From Dromiciops gliroides (lineage: Eukaryota > Chordata > Mammalia > Microbiotheria > Microbiotheriidae), in contig NC_057862.1 in the NCBI RefSeq assembly GCF_019393635.1, positions 477,404,669 through 477,468,668 on the forward strand: a stretch of DNA of 64,000 nucleotides, given 5' to 3'. The notes below the pieces were generated by a model, which was given only the letters and a program-made list of their open reading frames with translations, had not been told where the DNA came from and searched no databases. The position numbers and the translations under genes were made by a program. Shown here one piece after another: positions 7,363 through 63,888 of this stretch. Each line of letters begins with the position of its first letter. Within the stretch, counting starts at the first letter, position 1.

Positions 7363-7510
7363 TTTTTTTTTTTTAGTGAGGCAATTGGGGTTAAGCGACT
7401 TGCCCAGGGTCACACAGCTAGTAAGTGTTAAGTGTCTGAGGCCGGATTTGGACTCACATCCTCCCGACTCCAGGGCCTGTGCTCTATCCACTGCGCCACC
7501 TAGCTGCCCC
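7363..7510 (-). mobile_element. Short marsupial SINE (AATTGCCTCAC subtype)
   Basis: T17-type tail, body and head complement GCTGCCCC. Flanking duplication AGTCATAGAATCTT at 7348-7361 and 7511-7524. Confidence 0.93.
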
Positions 7511-8139: not shown

Positions 8140-8315
8140 TTTTTTTCTTTTCTTTTCTTCTCTTTTCTTTTTTTTTTGGGTGAGGCAATTGGAGTTAAGA
8201 GACTTGCCCAGGGTCACACAGCTAGTAAGTGTTAAGTGTCTGAGGCCAGATTTGAACTCAGGTCCTCCTGAATCCAGGGCCAGTGCTCTATCCATTGTGC
8301 CACCTAGCTGCCCTT
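8140..8315 (-). mobile_element. Short marsupial SINE C in same-site array
   Basis: Tail TTTTCTTTTCTTCTC, AATTGCCTCAC-type 3-prime end (GTGAGGCAATTGGAGTTAAG). Flanked by CTTGTCCTTTATTC and CTTGTCCTTCATTC. Confidence 0.9.
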
Positions 8316-37334: not shown

Positions 37335-37500
37335 TCTTTTTTTTTTTTTTTTTTTTTTTTAGTGAGGCAACTGGGGTTAAGTGACTTGCCCAGAGTCACA
37401 CAGCTAGGAAGTGTGTGTTAAGTGTCTGAGGCCAGATTTGAACTCAGGTACTCCTGACTCCAGGGCCGGTGCTCTATCCACTGCGCCATCTAGCTGCCCC
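37335..37500 (-). mobile_element. Short marsupial SINE
   Basis: T-run tail, complete body with a 4-base TGTG duplication, flanked by a perfect 17-base duplication CAGTCATCTATTCTAAT (37318-37334 and 37501-37517). Confidence 0.95.
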
Positions 37501-40892: not shown

Positions 40893-42095
40893 AGGGGAAG
40901 AATATATGACCAAAGATGAAATGGAAAATGGATTAAAAAGAGTTTACACAAACAAAATCAATGCCACCAATATTAGAAAAAAAGTAGAAAGATGGGAAAA
41001 AATTTTATAGACAATGTTTCTGACAAAGGCCTCATTTCTCAGTTATATAGATAACCGAATCAAATTTATAAGAATTCAAGTCATTCTCCAACTGAAAAAT
41101 GGTCAAAGGATATGAATAGGCAGTTTTCAGATGAAGAAATTAAAGCTATTTATAGTCACATAGAAAAATGTTCTCCCTCACTATTGATTAGAGAAATGCA
41201 AACTAAACTACTCACACCTATAATATTGGTTAATATAACAAAAAAGTAAAATGATAAATATTGGAGAAGATGTGGGAAAGTTAGAACACATGCATTGTTG
41301 GTGGAGTTGTGAATTGATCCAATCTTTCTGGAGAGCAATTTGGAATATTGCCCAAAGGGTTATAAAACTGTACATACCTTTTGACCCAGCAATACCACTA
41401 CTAGGTCCATATCCCAAAGATATCATTAAAAATGGAAAAGGACCCACATATACAAAAATATTTATAGCTGCTCTTTTTGTTGTGGCAAATAATTGGAAAC
41501 TGAGGGGATGCTCATCAATTGGGGAGTGGCCAAAAAAGTTGTGGTATATGAATGAAATGGTATACTATTGTGCTGTAAAAAATGATGAGCAGGCAGATTT
41601 CAGAAAAACCTGTAATTACATTAACTTATGTTGAGTGAAGTGAGCAGAACCAGATCATTGTACATAACAGTAACATTGTGTGATAATCAACTGTGATAGA
41701 CTTAGCTCTTTTCAGCAATACAATAATCCAAGACAATTCCAAAAGACTCAGGATGGAAAATGCTCTGCACAGCCAAAAAACATTAACTATGGAGTATGAA
41801 TGCAGATTGAAGCATACAAATTTCACCTTTTTGGTGTTGGGGATTTTTGGTTGTTTCTTCTTCTTGTGGTTTTTCCCTTTTGTTCTGATTTTTCTTTCAC
41901 AACACGACTAATGTGGAAATATTTTCAACATGATTTTACTGTATAACCTATATCTGATTGCTTGTTGTCTTGAGGAGGGGGCAGGGAAAGGAAGGAGGGA
42001 GAAAAATTTGGAACTCAAAAATTTACAAAAATCAATGTTGAAAACTATCTTTATATGTAAACTGGAAAAAAATAAAATAAAATACTAATTTTTTA
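40893..42095 (+). mobile_element. L1 3-prime end
   Basis: From AAGAATATATGACCAAAGAT through the late ORF2 frame at 41251-41634, whose residues include the WWSCELI and PFDPAIPLLG stretches typical of the end of L1 ORF2p. It continues to the 3-prime UTR and the A-rich tail. Interrupted by stops. Confidence 0.9.
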
Positions 42096-53082: not shown

Positions 53083-54276
53083 CTCCCCCTTTTGGAGGAG
53101 AGCTAAAGGCATGGATATTCATTGTGCCATCATAGATAAATCACTGTTAATCAATCAACTTATCCATAAGAATTTATTAAGGACCTATTGTGTCAGGTAC
53201 TGTGCTAGGTGCTGGTAATACAAAGATAAAAACAAAACATTCTCTTTCCTCAAGGATCTTGTATTCTCTGGAGAAGGGGAAAAGATTCCTCGTCTGTAGA
53301 ATGAGAGGGTTGAGATAAATGATATCTAAGGTTCCTCCTAATTCTAACATTTGGTGATTTTATTTTTGATCAAGGCTACCAGGTCATTAGGATAGATTAA
53401 GCTTTATTATGATAAGGATTGGCCCCAACAATAGAGTTCTGCCTGAATAAGTAGTCATGTGTCCCCTAAAGAAAAACCAGCAGATAGCACTTCAGAATTC
53501 TGGTCCATCATCCAGAATTGGACTCTCCTCCCTTGCTCTTGATTAGTTCAAGGGAATTGTCAATATTCTGATGAAACTTTTACATATGAACTTTGAAGAG
53601 GTGAGGAGAGGGAAGCATGGTAAAAGCAACAGGAAGAAGGGGAGAGAAATGGTAATCCATGAAAAAAAATATATATATAGGGGAATTGGTCAACAGGTCC
53701 CAATCCTTGGACTATACATAGTATGCTCTGCCTGCTGGCAATTTAAGTGGATGCTCAGTGACCCTGTGTCCAGATAATTCATAATTAAGGAGCCCTGCCC
53801 TGATTTAGGGCAAATATAGTTATCCTTTGACTATTTCCTAATAACTTACCTTGTAATGATAGAAAGACTTTTAATTCAATATCTGCTAAGCCAGAAAGTA
53901 ATATACATACAAGGCACAAACAGACCAAAAGTAGTGTCTCCTTGGTAGCTTTCTAGTAAGAAGGAAGAAGTAGTTAAGCCTCTGGATAGGAGCCTACCTA
54001 TGATGCATGCAGCCACAAATACATGGCACTATTGCTTCTTCTGTCTCTGTTATGTTTCTTCTTTCCTGATCTTAGGAAAAGATTAGAATGGAGATTAGCA
54101 ATATAGTGAACCATATTTGAAAGGTTAGAAGAGAGTCCCCTTCAATAACTGGGGCTGTTAGCTGCAGTAGCAAAGACCAGTGAGCATCCAGCCCTGAAGA
54201 GCAACTAGTTGCTGAAACATAGCCTACATGGTTCTTTCAACCTTTTGAAGTTTACAGGGTCATAATCTGGATTCCT

Positions 54277-54304
54277 GGGGGCAGCTAGGTGGTGCAGTGG
54301 ATAA
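54277..54304 (+). mobile_element. SINE 5-prime stub
   Basis: Only the first 28 bases of the SINE (GGGGGCAGCTAGGTGGTGCA...) remain before the sequence switches to L1-like DNA, implying a deletion or template switch. Confidence 0.7.
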
Positions 54305-55435
54305 GTATGACATATTGAATTTCTGGATTTAATAGAGAGGGTTGAGGAGAGAGGGAGGAAGAAAATTTGGAACATAGAATTAGCTCAAAGACCTTAAACT
54401 CATCAGAGTTGGCTCATGGAGGGAATAACATTCACACCCACTTGGGAGGAGTAATCTATTTAACCCTACAGGAAAGTATGAGGGGAAGAGGATAAGGAAG
54501 GAAGGGTGAAAAAAAAGGGGGAGTGCAGAGTAGGGGAGGGGACAGTCAGAAGTAAAACACTTTTGAGGAGGAATAGTTTAAAAGAAGATAGAAAATAGAG
54601 TAAATATCATGGGAAGGGAATAGGATGGAGGGAAATAGTTATGATGATTGAATGTAATGGCAAAACATATGGTACCTACTTTGCTGGGCTAATATGAAGA
54701 AAATTCTTTGTCAAGTTTAAGGTACTTTATTTAGGTTATGATGAACAGGATATTATCAGAAAAACCTGGAAATACCTACATGAACTGAAGCAGAGTGAAA
54801 TGTACTGTATACAAAAATAACAGCAATAGTGTAAGATGATCTGCTAGGAAGCATGTGGTTATTTTCAGCAAGGCAATGGTCCAATATAACCCTGAAGGAC
54901 TTATGAAAATGGCAACCCATCTACAGAGAAAGAAGTGATAGTATCTGAAAATAGATGGAAACACATTTTTTTCTTTTCTTTTTTTTTTTTTTTTTTGGTG
55001 AGGCAATTAGGGTTGGGTGCCTTGCCCAGGGTCACACGGCTGGTGGGTGTTGGGTGCCTGGGGCCGGATTTGGGCTCCGGTGCTCCTGGTTCCAGGGCTG
55101 GTGCTCTGTCCACTGCACCACCTGGCTGCCCCTGGAAACACATTTTTTAAAAAAAAAATTTTTTCTCTTTGACAATTCCTCAGTCTGAAATTTTGGGAGT
55201 TTTTTGACTGTTTTCTCTCACAATCTAGCTAATGTGGGAATGTTTTCCATGACTACTCATGTATAACTTATTTTAAAATGCTTGAGTTCTAGTGGGTGGG
55301 GGTGAGAAGGGAGGAGGAAGAGAAGTTGGAACACAATTTTTTTTAATTGATGTTAAAATTTGTTTTTACATATATTTTGGAAAATAAAATTCTATTCAAT
55401 AAAAAAAATTAAAGAGTGAAAAAAAAGAATGGAGG
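54305..55435 (+). mobile_element. L1 fragment hosting the hypermutated SINE
   Basis: Contains L1 blocks (ACCCTACAGGAAAGTATGAGG, TACATGAACTGAAGCAGAGTG, ATCTACAGAGAAAGAAGTGATAG) to a 3-prime terminus with AAAATAAAATTC near 55390. The SINE at 54972-55132 splits it. A further L1 ORF2 piece in the same orientation follows (55436-55990). Confidence 0.75.
54972..55132 (-). mobile_element. Short marsupial SINE with clustered A-to-G changes
   Basis: Poly-pyrimidine tail (left), body, head complement GCTGCCCC. Perfect 16-base duplication TGGAAACACATTTTTT at 54956-54971 and 55133-55148. Against the other minus copies here, about 15 of about 22 substitutions in 55000-55132 are A-to-G on the + strand (for example TTAAGTG to TTGGGTG, CTAGTAAGTG to CTGGTGGGTG, TTGAACTC to TTGGGCTC). 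See findings. Confidence 0.93.
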
Positions 55436-56364
55436 TGACAAGGGAGAATCAGAAAAAAATGGAATTAATAACCTGGTGTTCAATAAATTGGAAAACATAT
55501 ATTACTTAGAAAAAACTCTCAGTTTAATTAAAACTGCTAGAAAAACTGTAAAGCACAATGCAGAAATCAGATGTTAACCAAAATCTTATGTTGGATTCCA
55601 CATTATGTTTTAAATGGTTATATGAAATTACTATTAAAGATCAAAATATTTTTAAGAACTAGATGAGAGGCAGACTGTAGATTAGAGATGTATCCTTAAC
55701 CAAACAAAGCATAGAGGTAATTACAAAAGATAAAATACATAACTTTGATTTTATTAAACTGAAACTTTCTACACAAACAAATTTATAAACCTAGAACAAT
55801 GACCAAATGCAGGGGTGAGGGGTTGGTAGGAATCATTGCAATCTTCAAATATCCAAAACCTCTTCTTCACTCTTTATTAGCTGCTATCATTAGTCACAAA
55901 GAGGTAGTGATCCTTGGATTTTCCTTTATGTCAACAAAGAGAAATATATTCATTAGTAAGAACAATAATGATATACAATTGAAGATCAAATAATTAATAA
56001 GGAAACAACTGCCCGAGATGCTAAGAAGGAATCAGAGCAGCTCCTTCTTCTGAACTTAACCCTCCCAAGGGAGAAGAAATCATCCACCAACTTAAACAAG
56101 GCAAGAACTTAGCTAATTCTTCTTTTACAGACAAGTGAGAGAGAAAGCAAAGTCCACTTCAGCTGTTCTACAGTGGCAATACCATAAGTTCTGGAGGGAG
56201 GGAAGGTTAGCAGAGAAAAAGGTTGCTCCTAAGTTTTTGACTTCCATCATATGCACCTGGAGCTTATCAGATCACAGAGGAAGGGTCACAAAAACCAGTA
56301 CCCACTCAAACTTTGTTGTGCTTCCTTCCATGAGGTATGAGGAACCTGAATGGCTATTCATTCC

Positions 56365-62701: not shown

Positions 62702-63888
62702 AGAGCAAGAAAAAATTTACCTGTCAGAGAAGTGAAGAATTTATGACCAAACAAGAGATAGAGAGTCTTGATATATTAAATTTTAAATGGTTTGAACAAA
62801 CAAGAACAATGCAATCAAGACTAAAAGGAAAGCAGAAAGCTGGGAGACAATTTTTATAGTAACTGATAAAGATCTTATTTCTCAAATATATAGAGAAGTG
62901 AGTCAAGTTTTAAGTCATTCCCCCATTAATAAATGGTCAAAGGATATGAACAAACAAGTGAAGAAATCAAAGCTATCTATAGTCATATGAAAAAATTATC
63001 TAAATCACTATTGATTAGAGAAATACAAATTAAAACAAATCTGAGATATCACCTCACACCTGTCAGATTAGCTAATATGACAGAAATGGAAAATGATAAA
63101 CATTGGAGGGGATGTGGGAAAATGGGGACACTAATGCACTATTGGTGGAGTTGTGAACTGATCCCATCATTCTGGAGAACAATTTGGAACTATGCCCAAA
63201 GTGCTATATAACTGTGCATACCCTTTAATCCATCAATACTACTACTAGGTCTGTAACCCAAAGAAGGGTAAAATACAAGGGGATAAATTTGTACAAAAAT
63301 ATTTATAGCAGTTTCTTGTGGTGGCAAAAAATTAGAATTTAAGGGAATTCCCATCAGTTGGGGAATGACCAGACAAGTTGTGTTATATTATTGTAATGGA
63401 ATACTATTGTGCTATAAGAAATGACAAGCAGGGGGATTTCAGAAAAACCTAGGAAGACTTGTATGAACTGACGCAAAGTGATACAAGAACCAGAAGAACA
63501 TTGAACGCAGTGTCAGCAATATTGTACAATTATCAGCTTAGCTATTCTTGGCAATACAATGATCCAAGGCAATCCCAAAGTACTCATGATGAAACATGTT
63601 ATCCACTTCCAGAGAAAGAACTGAAGGTAGCTGAATGCAAATCAAAGCATACTATTTTTAACTCTTTTTTCATGGGTTTTTTTTTTCCTTTTCATCTGTG
63701 TCTTCTTCCACAATATTACTAACATGGAAATATGTTTTGCATGATTACACATGTATAATTTATATCAAATTGCTTATCACCTCAGGGGGAGATGGAGAAG
63801 GGAGAGAAAATTTGGAACTCAAAAAAATTTTAATGAATGTTAAAAATTGTCTTTAAATGTAATCGAGAAAAATAAAATATTATTTTTT
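62702..63888 (+). mobile_element. L1 3-prime end, 5-prime truncated, inside the RTE
   Basis: Late ORF2 (WWSCELIPSFW at about 63140-63172) to G-rich 3-prime UTR and A-rich tail. The flanks ATTTCTCCATTTG (left) and ATTTTCCATTTG (right) are a near-perfect duplication. Confidence 0.9.

What the first reader, a model, noticed from the sequence alone, without database searches (positions are those of the whole stretch)
54972..55132. A SINE with clustered A-to-G hypermutation confined to the inserted element
Compared by hand with minus-strand copies at 7374-7510, 8179-8315 and 37364-37500, this SINE has about 22 substitutions over about 135 bases, of which about 15 are A-to-G on the + strand (others: 2 A-to-C, 1 T-to-C, 2 C-to-T, 2 G-to-A). 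Roughly half of its adenines are gone, while its perfect 16-base target duplication and the A-rich L1 flanks are not depleted. CpG decay predicts C-to-T and G-to-A, the opposite direction, and APOBEC gives G-to-A. Two models fit. (1) ADAR-type deamination of the first-strand cDNA in the RNA:DNA hybrid during target-primed insertion: the cDNA strand is the + strand here. (2) A-to-I editing of an L1 read-through RNA carrying this SINE antisense, paired to another SINE, then copied as a whole. The first predicts edits stopping exactly at the SINE borders.
Basis: partly seen in the sequence, partly recalled or inferred. Interest (0 to 1): 0.75.

Follow-up and report, generated by a model that had tools for sequence, protein, structure and literature searches.

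The report
Edited SINE carried inside an L1
A short repeat lying backwards inside a LINE-1 jumping element has lost most of its A letters to G, apparently because the element's RNA was edited before being copied back into the genome, again and again over evolution, so that the genome keeps a record of RNA editing.

Summary
The A-to-G excess is real: 24 differences in 136 bases from the ordinary SINE, 16 of them A>G on +. It is not private. The SINE entered a LINE-1 3' region once, antisense; the "perfect target duplication" belongs to that old event (flank shared by 103 of 114 edited copies, strict test). The composite then spread; its junction has 763 places (some perhaps chance). So A>G lies on the L1 RNA strand, which contradicts cDNA editing (T>C expected) and fits A-to-I editing of L1 RNA paired to sense SINE RNA, then reverse transcription. 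Support: in 18 partly edited copies 205 of 499 SINE A's are G, against 37 of 2772 flank A's; 17 of 18 edit sets differ and show no signal on a flank tree; a second antisense SINE in the same L1 is changed at the same six sites; late edits are inherited. ADAR and the pairing are inferred; the neighbour-base test is equivocal and no partner was found in the element.

The parts
54999..55132 (-). Hyperedited tRNA-type CORE-SINE body (WSINE1-like; the name is inferred), antisense to the host L1; 13 of 16 diagnostic sites in the edited state
54972..54998 (-). A-tail of the SINE, seen as T's on +
   Evidence: sequence; tails in relatives
54956..54971 (+). Left copy of the 16-base duplication made when the SINE entered the L1 ancestor; shared by the family
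55133..55148 (+). Right copy of the same duplication
54303..55399 (+). 5'-truncated copy of the host L1 3' region, polyA from about 55400; RNA sense = +
   Evidence: extent by comparison with longer copies; 3' end with AATAAA and A-tail; a related 3' region follows an L1 ORF2 C-terminus at 41251-41634
54277..54302 (+). 5' piece of an ordinary SINE in sense orientation joined to the truncated L1 end (possible template jump)

Best explanation
A SINE inserted once, antisense, into the 3' region of an L1 source element (shown). L1 RNA from this lineage then carried an antisense SINE (follows from strand and tail). That stretch paired with sense SINE RNA, SINEs being very common in this genome, and an ADAR deaminated many of its adenosines (inferred). 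Reverse transcription read inosine as G, so each new L1 copy recorded its own set of A>G changes, confined to the paired SINE (pattern shown, enzyme inferred). Some edited copies became new sources, so edits were inherited and added to, until most convertible A's were gone (shown by late sites that follow the flank tree). The window copy is one such late, 5'-truncated descendant.
For: (1) Shared insertion: 103 of 114 edited copies carry the host flank by a strict 6-base test, 0 of 6 unedited relatives do. Of the other 11, four are recognisably the same flank shifted or mutated (L021, L102, L103, L138), three cannot be judged (L113 and L128 have lost the SINE start, L146 is unclear) and four are elsewhere. 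An empty-site L1 relative is held (L052). (2) Strand: the composite ends in AATAAA plus polyA on +, so A>G is on its RNA strand. In 33 partly edited copies sense T>C is 378/909 against sense A>G 4/1049. (3) Confinement: in 18 partly edited copies A>G on + is 205/499 in the SINE and 37/2772 in 450 flank sites, where T>C is 37/2376; Fisher 2e-144. The flank count is against the copies' own flank consensus, so fixed flank changes escape it; against the empty relative L052 the flanks show A>G 38, G>A 45, T>C 14, C>T 28. (4) Copy-specific sets: 17 of 18 haplotypes distinct; 11 edit sites take 51 steps on a flank tree of these copies, shuffled mean 51.8; incompatible site pairs do not depend on distance, which speaks against a few crossovers. 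(5) Inherited late sites: 60, 95, 97, 105 and 117 take 2, 6, 7, 10 and 7 steps against 13.4, 16.1, 14.7, 18.6 and 11.8 shuffled. (6) Replication: a second antisense SINE fragment about 1.1 kb upstream in the same element (all 8 of the 10 longer loci that reach so far) has another background (C43, G51); its consensus has T>C at the same six of six edited sites up to position 78 and at none of the five unedited ones. (7) Few unedited composites: 9 places within 3 mismatches of the unedited junction 78-mer, none with 0-1, against 509 for the edited one.
Against: Neighbour preference is equivocal. The base 5' of the edited A on + gives U 0.66, G 0.38, A 0.35, C 0.13, the 3' base A 0.50, G 0.35, U 0.33, C 0.29 (selected-on sites left out); U is best on the 5' side, as for ADAR, but G is not disfavoured there, whereas mammalian motifs show G depleted upstream and preferred downstream (PMC5625713, passages read). 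No sense SINE partner was found inside the element within about 860 bp upstream or in its 3' part; 6 of 8 longer copies have a sense SINE next to or within the L1 copy, but these are specific to each locus. A review passage says ADAR1 edits mainly Alus in polymerase II mRNAs, not polymerase III Alu RNA, and restricts L1 by binding rather than editing (PMC5974252, passages); neither favours pairing in trans. Partly edited copies are not fully independent: mean r2 0.083 against 0.037 shuffled, much of it from 59 versus 72, r -0.79; without 59, 72 and 117 P = 0.14 (28 of 33 copies with complete letters). The flank tree among them may be too star-like to show weak inheritance. Most of these copies were found by a pattern that requires C at 80, 81, 87, 88. 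Singleton changes outside the 22 sites are T>C in 1 of 34 and 0 of 42, but only ten T's lie outside the 16 edited sites, so this says little about whether old copies keep changing. No RNA data.
Confidence: 0.72

Rival explanations
1. A single ancient hypermutated or gradually mutated L1-SINE source, with all differences among copies due to ordinary inheritance from several sources (no repeated editing).
For: Late sites follow the flank tree; some linkage among sites; grade and flank divergence correlate, rho -0.30, P 0.026, though most highly edited copies there were picked by similarity.
Against: No tree signal for edits among partly edited copies; 17 of 18 distinct sets; 65 of 120 site pairs show all derived combinations at least twice, at all distances; 378 T>C to 4 A>G on the SINE strand is not an ordinary spectrum (in 74 young ordinary copies T>C is 65 against A>G 83).
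Confidence: 0.18
2. Deamination of DNA: ADAR or another enzyme acting on cDNA or on template DNA in an RNA:DNA hybrid.
Against: For the composite the cDNA is the minus strand, so T>C on + is expected; observed A>G 205/499 against T>C 6/575 in the SINE of the same copies. It should also act on the L1 flanks, which lie in the same hybrid.
Confidence: 0.04
3. Biased gene conversion, CpG effects or APOBEC.
For: The changes raise GC; some side changes (G96A, G98A) are at sites that became CpG.
Against: Biased conversion is strand-symmetric: T>C at 16 of 26 T's and A>G at 0 of 32 A's on SINE sense, P 7e-8. CpG decay and APOBEC give C>T or G>A, the wrong direction.
Confidence: 0.01
4. Selection for an L1 RNA with a weaker match to SINE RNA (escape from dsRNA sensing), acting on ordinary mutations.
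For: The same sites are hit in two SINEs of the same element.
Against: Copy-specific sets in copies that look like dead ends cannot be selected after insertion; other changes that would break pairing are hardly used (18 T>C against 4 others).
Confidence: 0.05

Closest known systems
ADAR hyper-editing of inverted SINEs in polymerase II transcripts (e.g. PMC5625713, passages read; PMC3197674, seen in a search listing only)
   Same: A-to-G clusters in the SINE part of a longer RNA, partner a SINE of opposite sense; that sets differ between molecules is recalled
   Different: Here the result is in genomic DNA, in several hundred L1 copies, and inherited; 5' G is not disfavoured; no partner located; no RNA seen
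APOBEC-type DNA editing of retroelements (G-to-A clusters; PMC2873906, passages read)
   Same: Clustered one-type change written into retroelement copies at copying time
   Different: Other enzyme class, other direction, RNA rather than DNA, confined to an embedded SINE
WSINE1 subfamilies of the Tasmanian devil (PMC3403934, abstract and sections 9, 11, 15, 16 read)
   Same: CORE-SINE with polyA tail and target duplications; subfamilies by source copies
   Different: The edited group is not a SINE source subfamily: it is spread by the L1 that carries it
A-to-G hypermutated retroviruses and RNA viruses (recalled, from no call)
   Same: ADAR-like A>G clusters fixed by copying
   Different: Here a cellular L1, only in its antisense SINE

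Membership tests
LINE-1 (host element) | Relatives carry ORF2 upstream of the same 3' region | tested here: met
   window 41251-41634 matches LINE-1 ORF2p residues 1139-1245, E 1e-29; regions homologous to the composite flanks (65-68% identity) lie at 41582-41753 and 41890-42072. Pfam found no family for this piece or for 62933-63211. Family level only; the composite's own ORF2 was not seen.
LINE-1 (host element) | PolyA tail and variable 5' truncation | tested here: met
   tail after AATAAA; window copy cut at 54303 while 8 of 10 longer loci held go on
LINE-1 (host element) | Own target duplication of the window L1 copy | tested here: not met
   no shared repeat of 7-14 bases between 54181-54310 and 55396-55480; the 5' end is joined to a SINE piece
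WSINE1-type CORE-SINE (the insert) | tRNA-type head, CORE region, polyA tail, duplications | tested here: inconclusive
   tail and duplication seen; the published consensus letters were not compared; the name is inferred from PMC3403934 and recall
ADAR A-to-I editing | A>G, on the RNA strand, confined to the part that can be double-stranded | tested here: met
   double-strandedness itself inferred
ADAR A-to-I editing | 5' neighbour U or A favoured, G disfavoured | tested here: inconclusive
   U 0.66, A 0.35, C 0.13, G 0.38; U/A over C/G by site, one-sided P 0.03; G against the rest P 0.59
ADAR A-to-I editing | Inosine in the RNA, lost without ADAR | not testable with these tools
   no RNA data held
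   duplication and changes shared by the family

The most novel reading that the evidence does not exclude
An L1 lineage that is a heritable recorder of RNA editing: RNA of a different, parasitic SINE family pairs in trans with antisense SINE passengers in L1 RNA, ADAR edits them, and L1 reverse transcription writes each molecule's edits into the germline, where edited copies become new sources and the passenger is driven towards the fully edited state.
Probability: 0.5. Interest if true: 0.85.

Novelty: new variant of a known kind. Interest (0 to 1): 0.72.

Why it matters
If right, RNA editing is not only a passing change: through L1 it has become a directional, inherited mutation process in a mammal, with an inbuilt control (the little-changed L1 flanks) and a graded series of several hundred copies. 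It would let germline ADAR activity and SINE-L1 RNA pairing in the past be read from DNA, and it warns that a "SINE subfamily" can be spread by another element and shaped by editing rather than by ordinary source-gene drift.

Tried and rejected
Rejected: a private event (one search gave 39 further copies at 92-96%); a SINE source subfamily (same flanks); a one-step jump, my own view, overturned by the graded copies; a SINE source locus edited in an R-loop (notebook), overturned; intramolecular folding of the antisense SINE as the editing substrate (edited A's are no more paired than unedited ones); selection for RNA structure (folds gave no support); full independence of edits between copies (linkage is present). 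Nothing came of: an ordinary copy as DNA query (no match; the tool skips very common words); Pfam on two ORF2 pieces. The flank spectra were dropped because they ran through homopolymers and past the element's end; mask runs and the first 39 bases of the 3' flank and drop 4 of 60 copies with under 300 sites (L011, L017, L159, L165). Paper searches listed no report of ADAR edits of an antisense SINE written back into L1 copies (three of them, 78, 103 and 118, had no match; of the rest I saw the listed titles and abstract starts, and passages of PMC2873906, PMC5625713, PMC5974252 and PMC5663115); only open-licence papers are held, so this is weak evidence of novelty. Three patterns did not complete and given up (YACYAGC..., GAGCCC..., and CTGGAATC... 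on the gap at 1-5 edits).

Full report
What is there. The window element is a 136-base SINE body (55132-54999, minus) with its tail, lying in + orientation DNA that ends about 270 bases further on in AATAAA and a polyA tail. Aligned with 25 other copies of the window it is the only one with a T>C excess on its own sense strand, i.e. A>G on +: 15 of 25 differences, others 0-3. Against a consensus of six young window copies: 24 of 136, of which 16 A>G on +. Positions below are those of that ordinary 136-base consensus.

It is a family. The whole-genome search (3.30 Gb, 17 contigs, unnamed; a dasyurid marsupial by inference) returned 39 other copies at 92-96% (40 of 2060 candidates were scored). 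All 39 were fetched; each differs from their consensus at 1-8 positions, the window copy at 7. That consensus differs from the ordinary one at 22 of 136 sites: 18 T>C, 2 G>A, 1 C>T, 1 G>C on SINE sense. With two polymorphic sites (33, 136) set aside, 16 of 26 T's went to C and 0 of 32 A's to G (P 7e-8). In 264 kb of window plus random sequence 144 of 145 copies carry 0-3 of the 16 changes; the 145th is the window copy itself.

It is graded. A pattern with free letters at later sites has 293 places, and the 100 rows listed include copies with only part of the changes. I aligned 120 copies in all: the window copy; 39; 20, 12 of them chosen as odd or less edited and 8 the first listed of the commonest partly edited class; 40 from the 100 rows (643 places), 12 of them chosen by letters at 44-60 and 28 in list order, skipping those already held; and 20 more of the partly edited class. 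Of these 114 carry 6-16 of the 16 changes and 6 carry none; none carries 1-5, in a sample chosen by patterns. The six without changes share A43 and C51 with most edited ones because the pattern asks for these letters.

It is one insertion. The supposed target duplications of the 39 copies turned out to be one and the same sequence: an exact duplication of 8 or more bases was found in 33 of 39, and the listing of all flanks shows the same letters. A strict test of the six flanking bases is met by 103 of 114 edited copies and 0 of 6 unedited ones. Of the 11 failures, L021, L102, L103 and L138 are the same flank shifted or mutated; L113 and L128 have lost the SINE start and L146 is unclear; L072, L135, L141 and L150 are elsewhere, and in the listings these four have T at 43. 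So the SINE entered a larger element once, and that element spread. A relative without the SINE is L052:7804-6846 (75-81% identity). Related 3' regions in the window lie at and behind an ORF2 C-terminus (41251-41634; LINE-1 ORF2p in solved structures, E 1e-29). The junction (six flank bases plus SINE start) has 763 places; of the 42 rows shown with letters 8 have the unedited T at 25, one of them a known edited copy, the others either chance flanks of ordinary SINEs or less edited composites.

Strand. The composite's polyA tail is on +, so its RNA is + and the A>G changes are on the RNA strand. Editing of its cDNA would give T>C on +. In 33 partly edited copies (A43; T at 60, 95, 105) the SINE sense strand has T>C 378/909 and A>G 4/1049.

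Confinement. In 18 partly edited copies with flanks, A>G is 205/499 in the SINE and 37/2772 in 450 flank sites outside runs; T>C in those flanks is 37/2376. In 38 highly edited copies: 663/1064, against 44/5809 and 54/4973. In the last 80 bases before the SINE it is 5/629 in the partly edited copies. Three results to set beside this. The 3' flank at 40-130 has somewhat more A>G than T>C in both sets (11/358 against 7/522; 15/753 against 4/1096), with G>A higher still (23/266; 19/567). The flank counts are against the copies' own consensus, the SINE counts against the ordinary SINE, so flank changes fixed early are not in them; the comparison with L052 (A>G 38, G>A 45, T>C 14, C>T 28, direction unknown) covers this in part. 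Between partly and highly edited copies the flank consensus changes at 3 of 450 sites, two of them A>G, while the SINE consensus changes at 9, six of them T>C on its sense strand.

Repeated or inherited? Both. On a tree from flanks alone (56 of 60 copies, 300 or more sites; 24 of 53 nodes with support of 0.8 or more) sites 60, 95, 97, 105 and 117 follow the tree; sites 25, 44, 55, 59, 72, 80, 88, 91 and 113 do not; 81, 87 and 118 hardly vary. Within 18 partly edited copies 11 sites take 51 steps, shuffled mean 51.8, P 0.42, and 17 of 18 edit sets are distinct. One supported pair (L169/L171, 0.96) differs at 8 of the 16 sites. Against full independence: linkage exceeds shuffles (0.072 against 0.028 in 37 of 45 copies; 0.083 against 0.037 in 28 of 33), much of it from 59 versus 72 (r -0.79); without 59, 72 and 117 it does not (P 0.14). 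Partly edited copies have more flank divergence than highly edited ones (3.2% and 2.4%, rho -0.30, P 0.026), though the latter were mostly picked by similarity. Singleton changes outside the 22 sites are seldom T>C (1 of 34 and 0 of 42), but few T's are left there. An unedited junction 78-mer (A43, C51) has 9 places within 3 mismatches and none within 1; the edited one has 509; unedited composites with other letters at 43 and 51, or more diverged, would be missed.

A second case in the same RNA. Ten longer loci are held besides the window's own; eight reach 5' of the point where the window copy is cut, and all eight show an older antisense SINE fragment about 350-450 bases further 5'. Its consensus over positions 1-78 has T>C at all six sites edited in the main SINE (25, 44, 55, 59, 60, 72; also at the polymorphic 33) and at none of the five left unedited (9, 13, 21, 39, 65), with other letters at 43, 51 and 52, so it is probably a separate SINE. 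Over 88 positions, the last ten of doubtful homology, it has T>C 9, G>A 4, C>T 3, T>A 2 and five single changes, one of them A>G; it is older. Descent from the main copy would need C51 to revert and is less likely, but is not excluded.

Mechanism. Strand, type, confinement, copy-to-copy variation and saturation are those of A-to-I editing of L1 RNA where it is paired to sense SINE RNA, fixed by reverse transcription. ADAR and the pairing are inferred. The edited A's are not the ones paired in a fold of the antisense SINE itself (0.38 against 0.47 for unedited ones; with flanks 0.43 against 0.70), so another strand is needed. In the eight longer copies no sense SINE is common to the element; six have a sense SINE beside or within the L1 copy, but apart from SINEs the downstream sequences share next to nothing. 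Neighbours: U best, but G not avoided on the 5' side and not preferred on the 3' side; published mammalian motifs avoid G upstream and prefer it downstream, with poor statistics for opossum (PMC5625713, passages). That paper also says that most edited clusters lie in SINEs, paired with oppositely oriented repeats. A review passage puts ADAR1 editing on Alus in polymerase II mRNAs rather than on polymerase III Alu RNA, and L1 restriction by ADAR1 on binding rather than editing (PMC5974252, passages).

Verdict. Observation confirmed. The description (one insertion, spread by L1, A>G confined to the antisense SINE) I hold at about 0.95; repeated editing of RNA at 0.72.

Noticed in passing
window 54277-54302: 26 bases of the 5' end of an ordinary SINE, in sense orientation, joined to the truncated 5' end of the L1 copy; 8 longer copies have L1 sequence there. 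Possible template jump from L1 RNA to SINE RNA, or an insertion beside a SINE.
   Followed up: partly
L072, L135, L141, L150: Four SINEs with 7-10 of the 16 T>C changes, T at position 43 and other flanks: possibly independent edited SINEs in other carriers. L072 appears to have a duplication of its own (AACACTTTT).
   Followed up: partly
L110 and L111 (C1, about 80.65 and 80.68 Mb): Two edited copies have the same list of extra changes, about 29 kb apart in opposite orientation: probably a local duplication rather than two insertions.
   Followed up: no
SINE positions 96 and 98 in edited copies: G>A at sites that became CpG through the T>C changes at 95 and 97: ordinary CpG decay following editing.
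   Followed up: partly
SINE positions 59 and 72 in partly edited copies: The two edits nearly exclude each other (r -0.79), although both are present in highly edited copies; two sources or two pairing partners?
   Followed up: no
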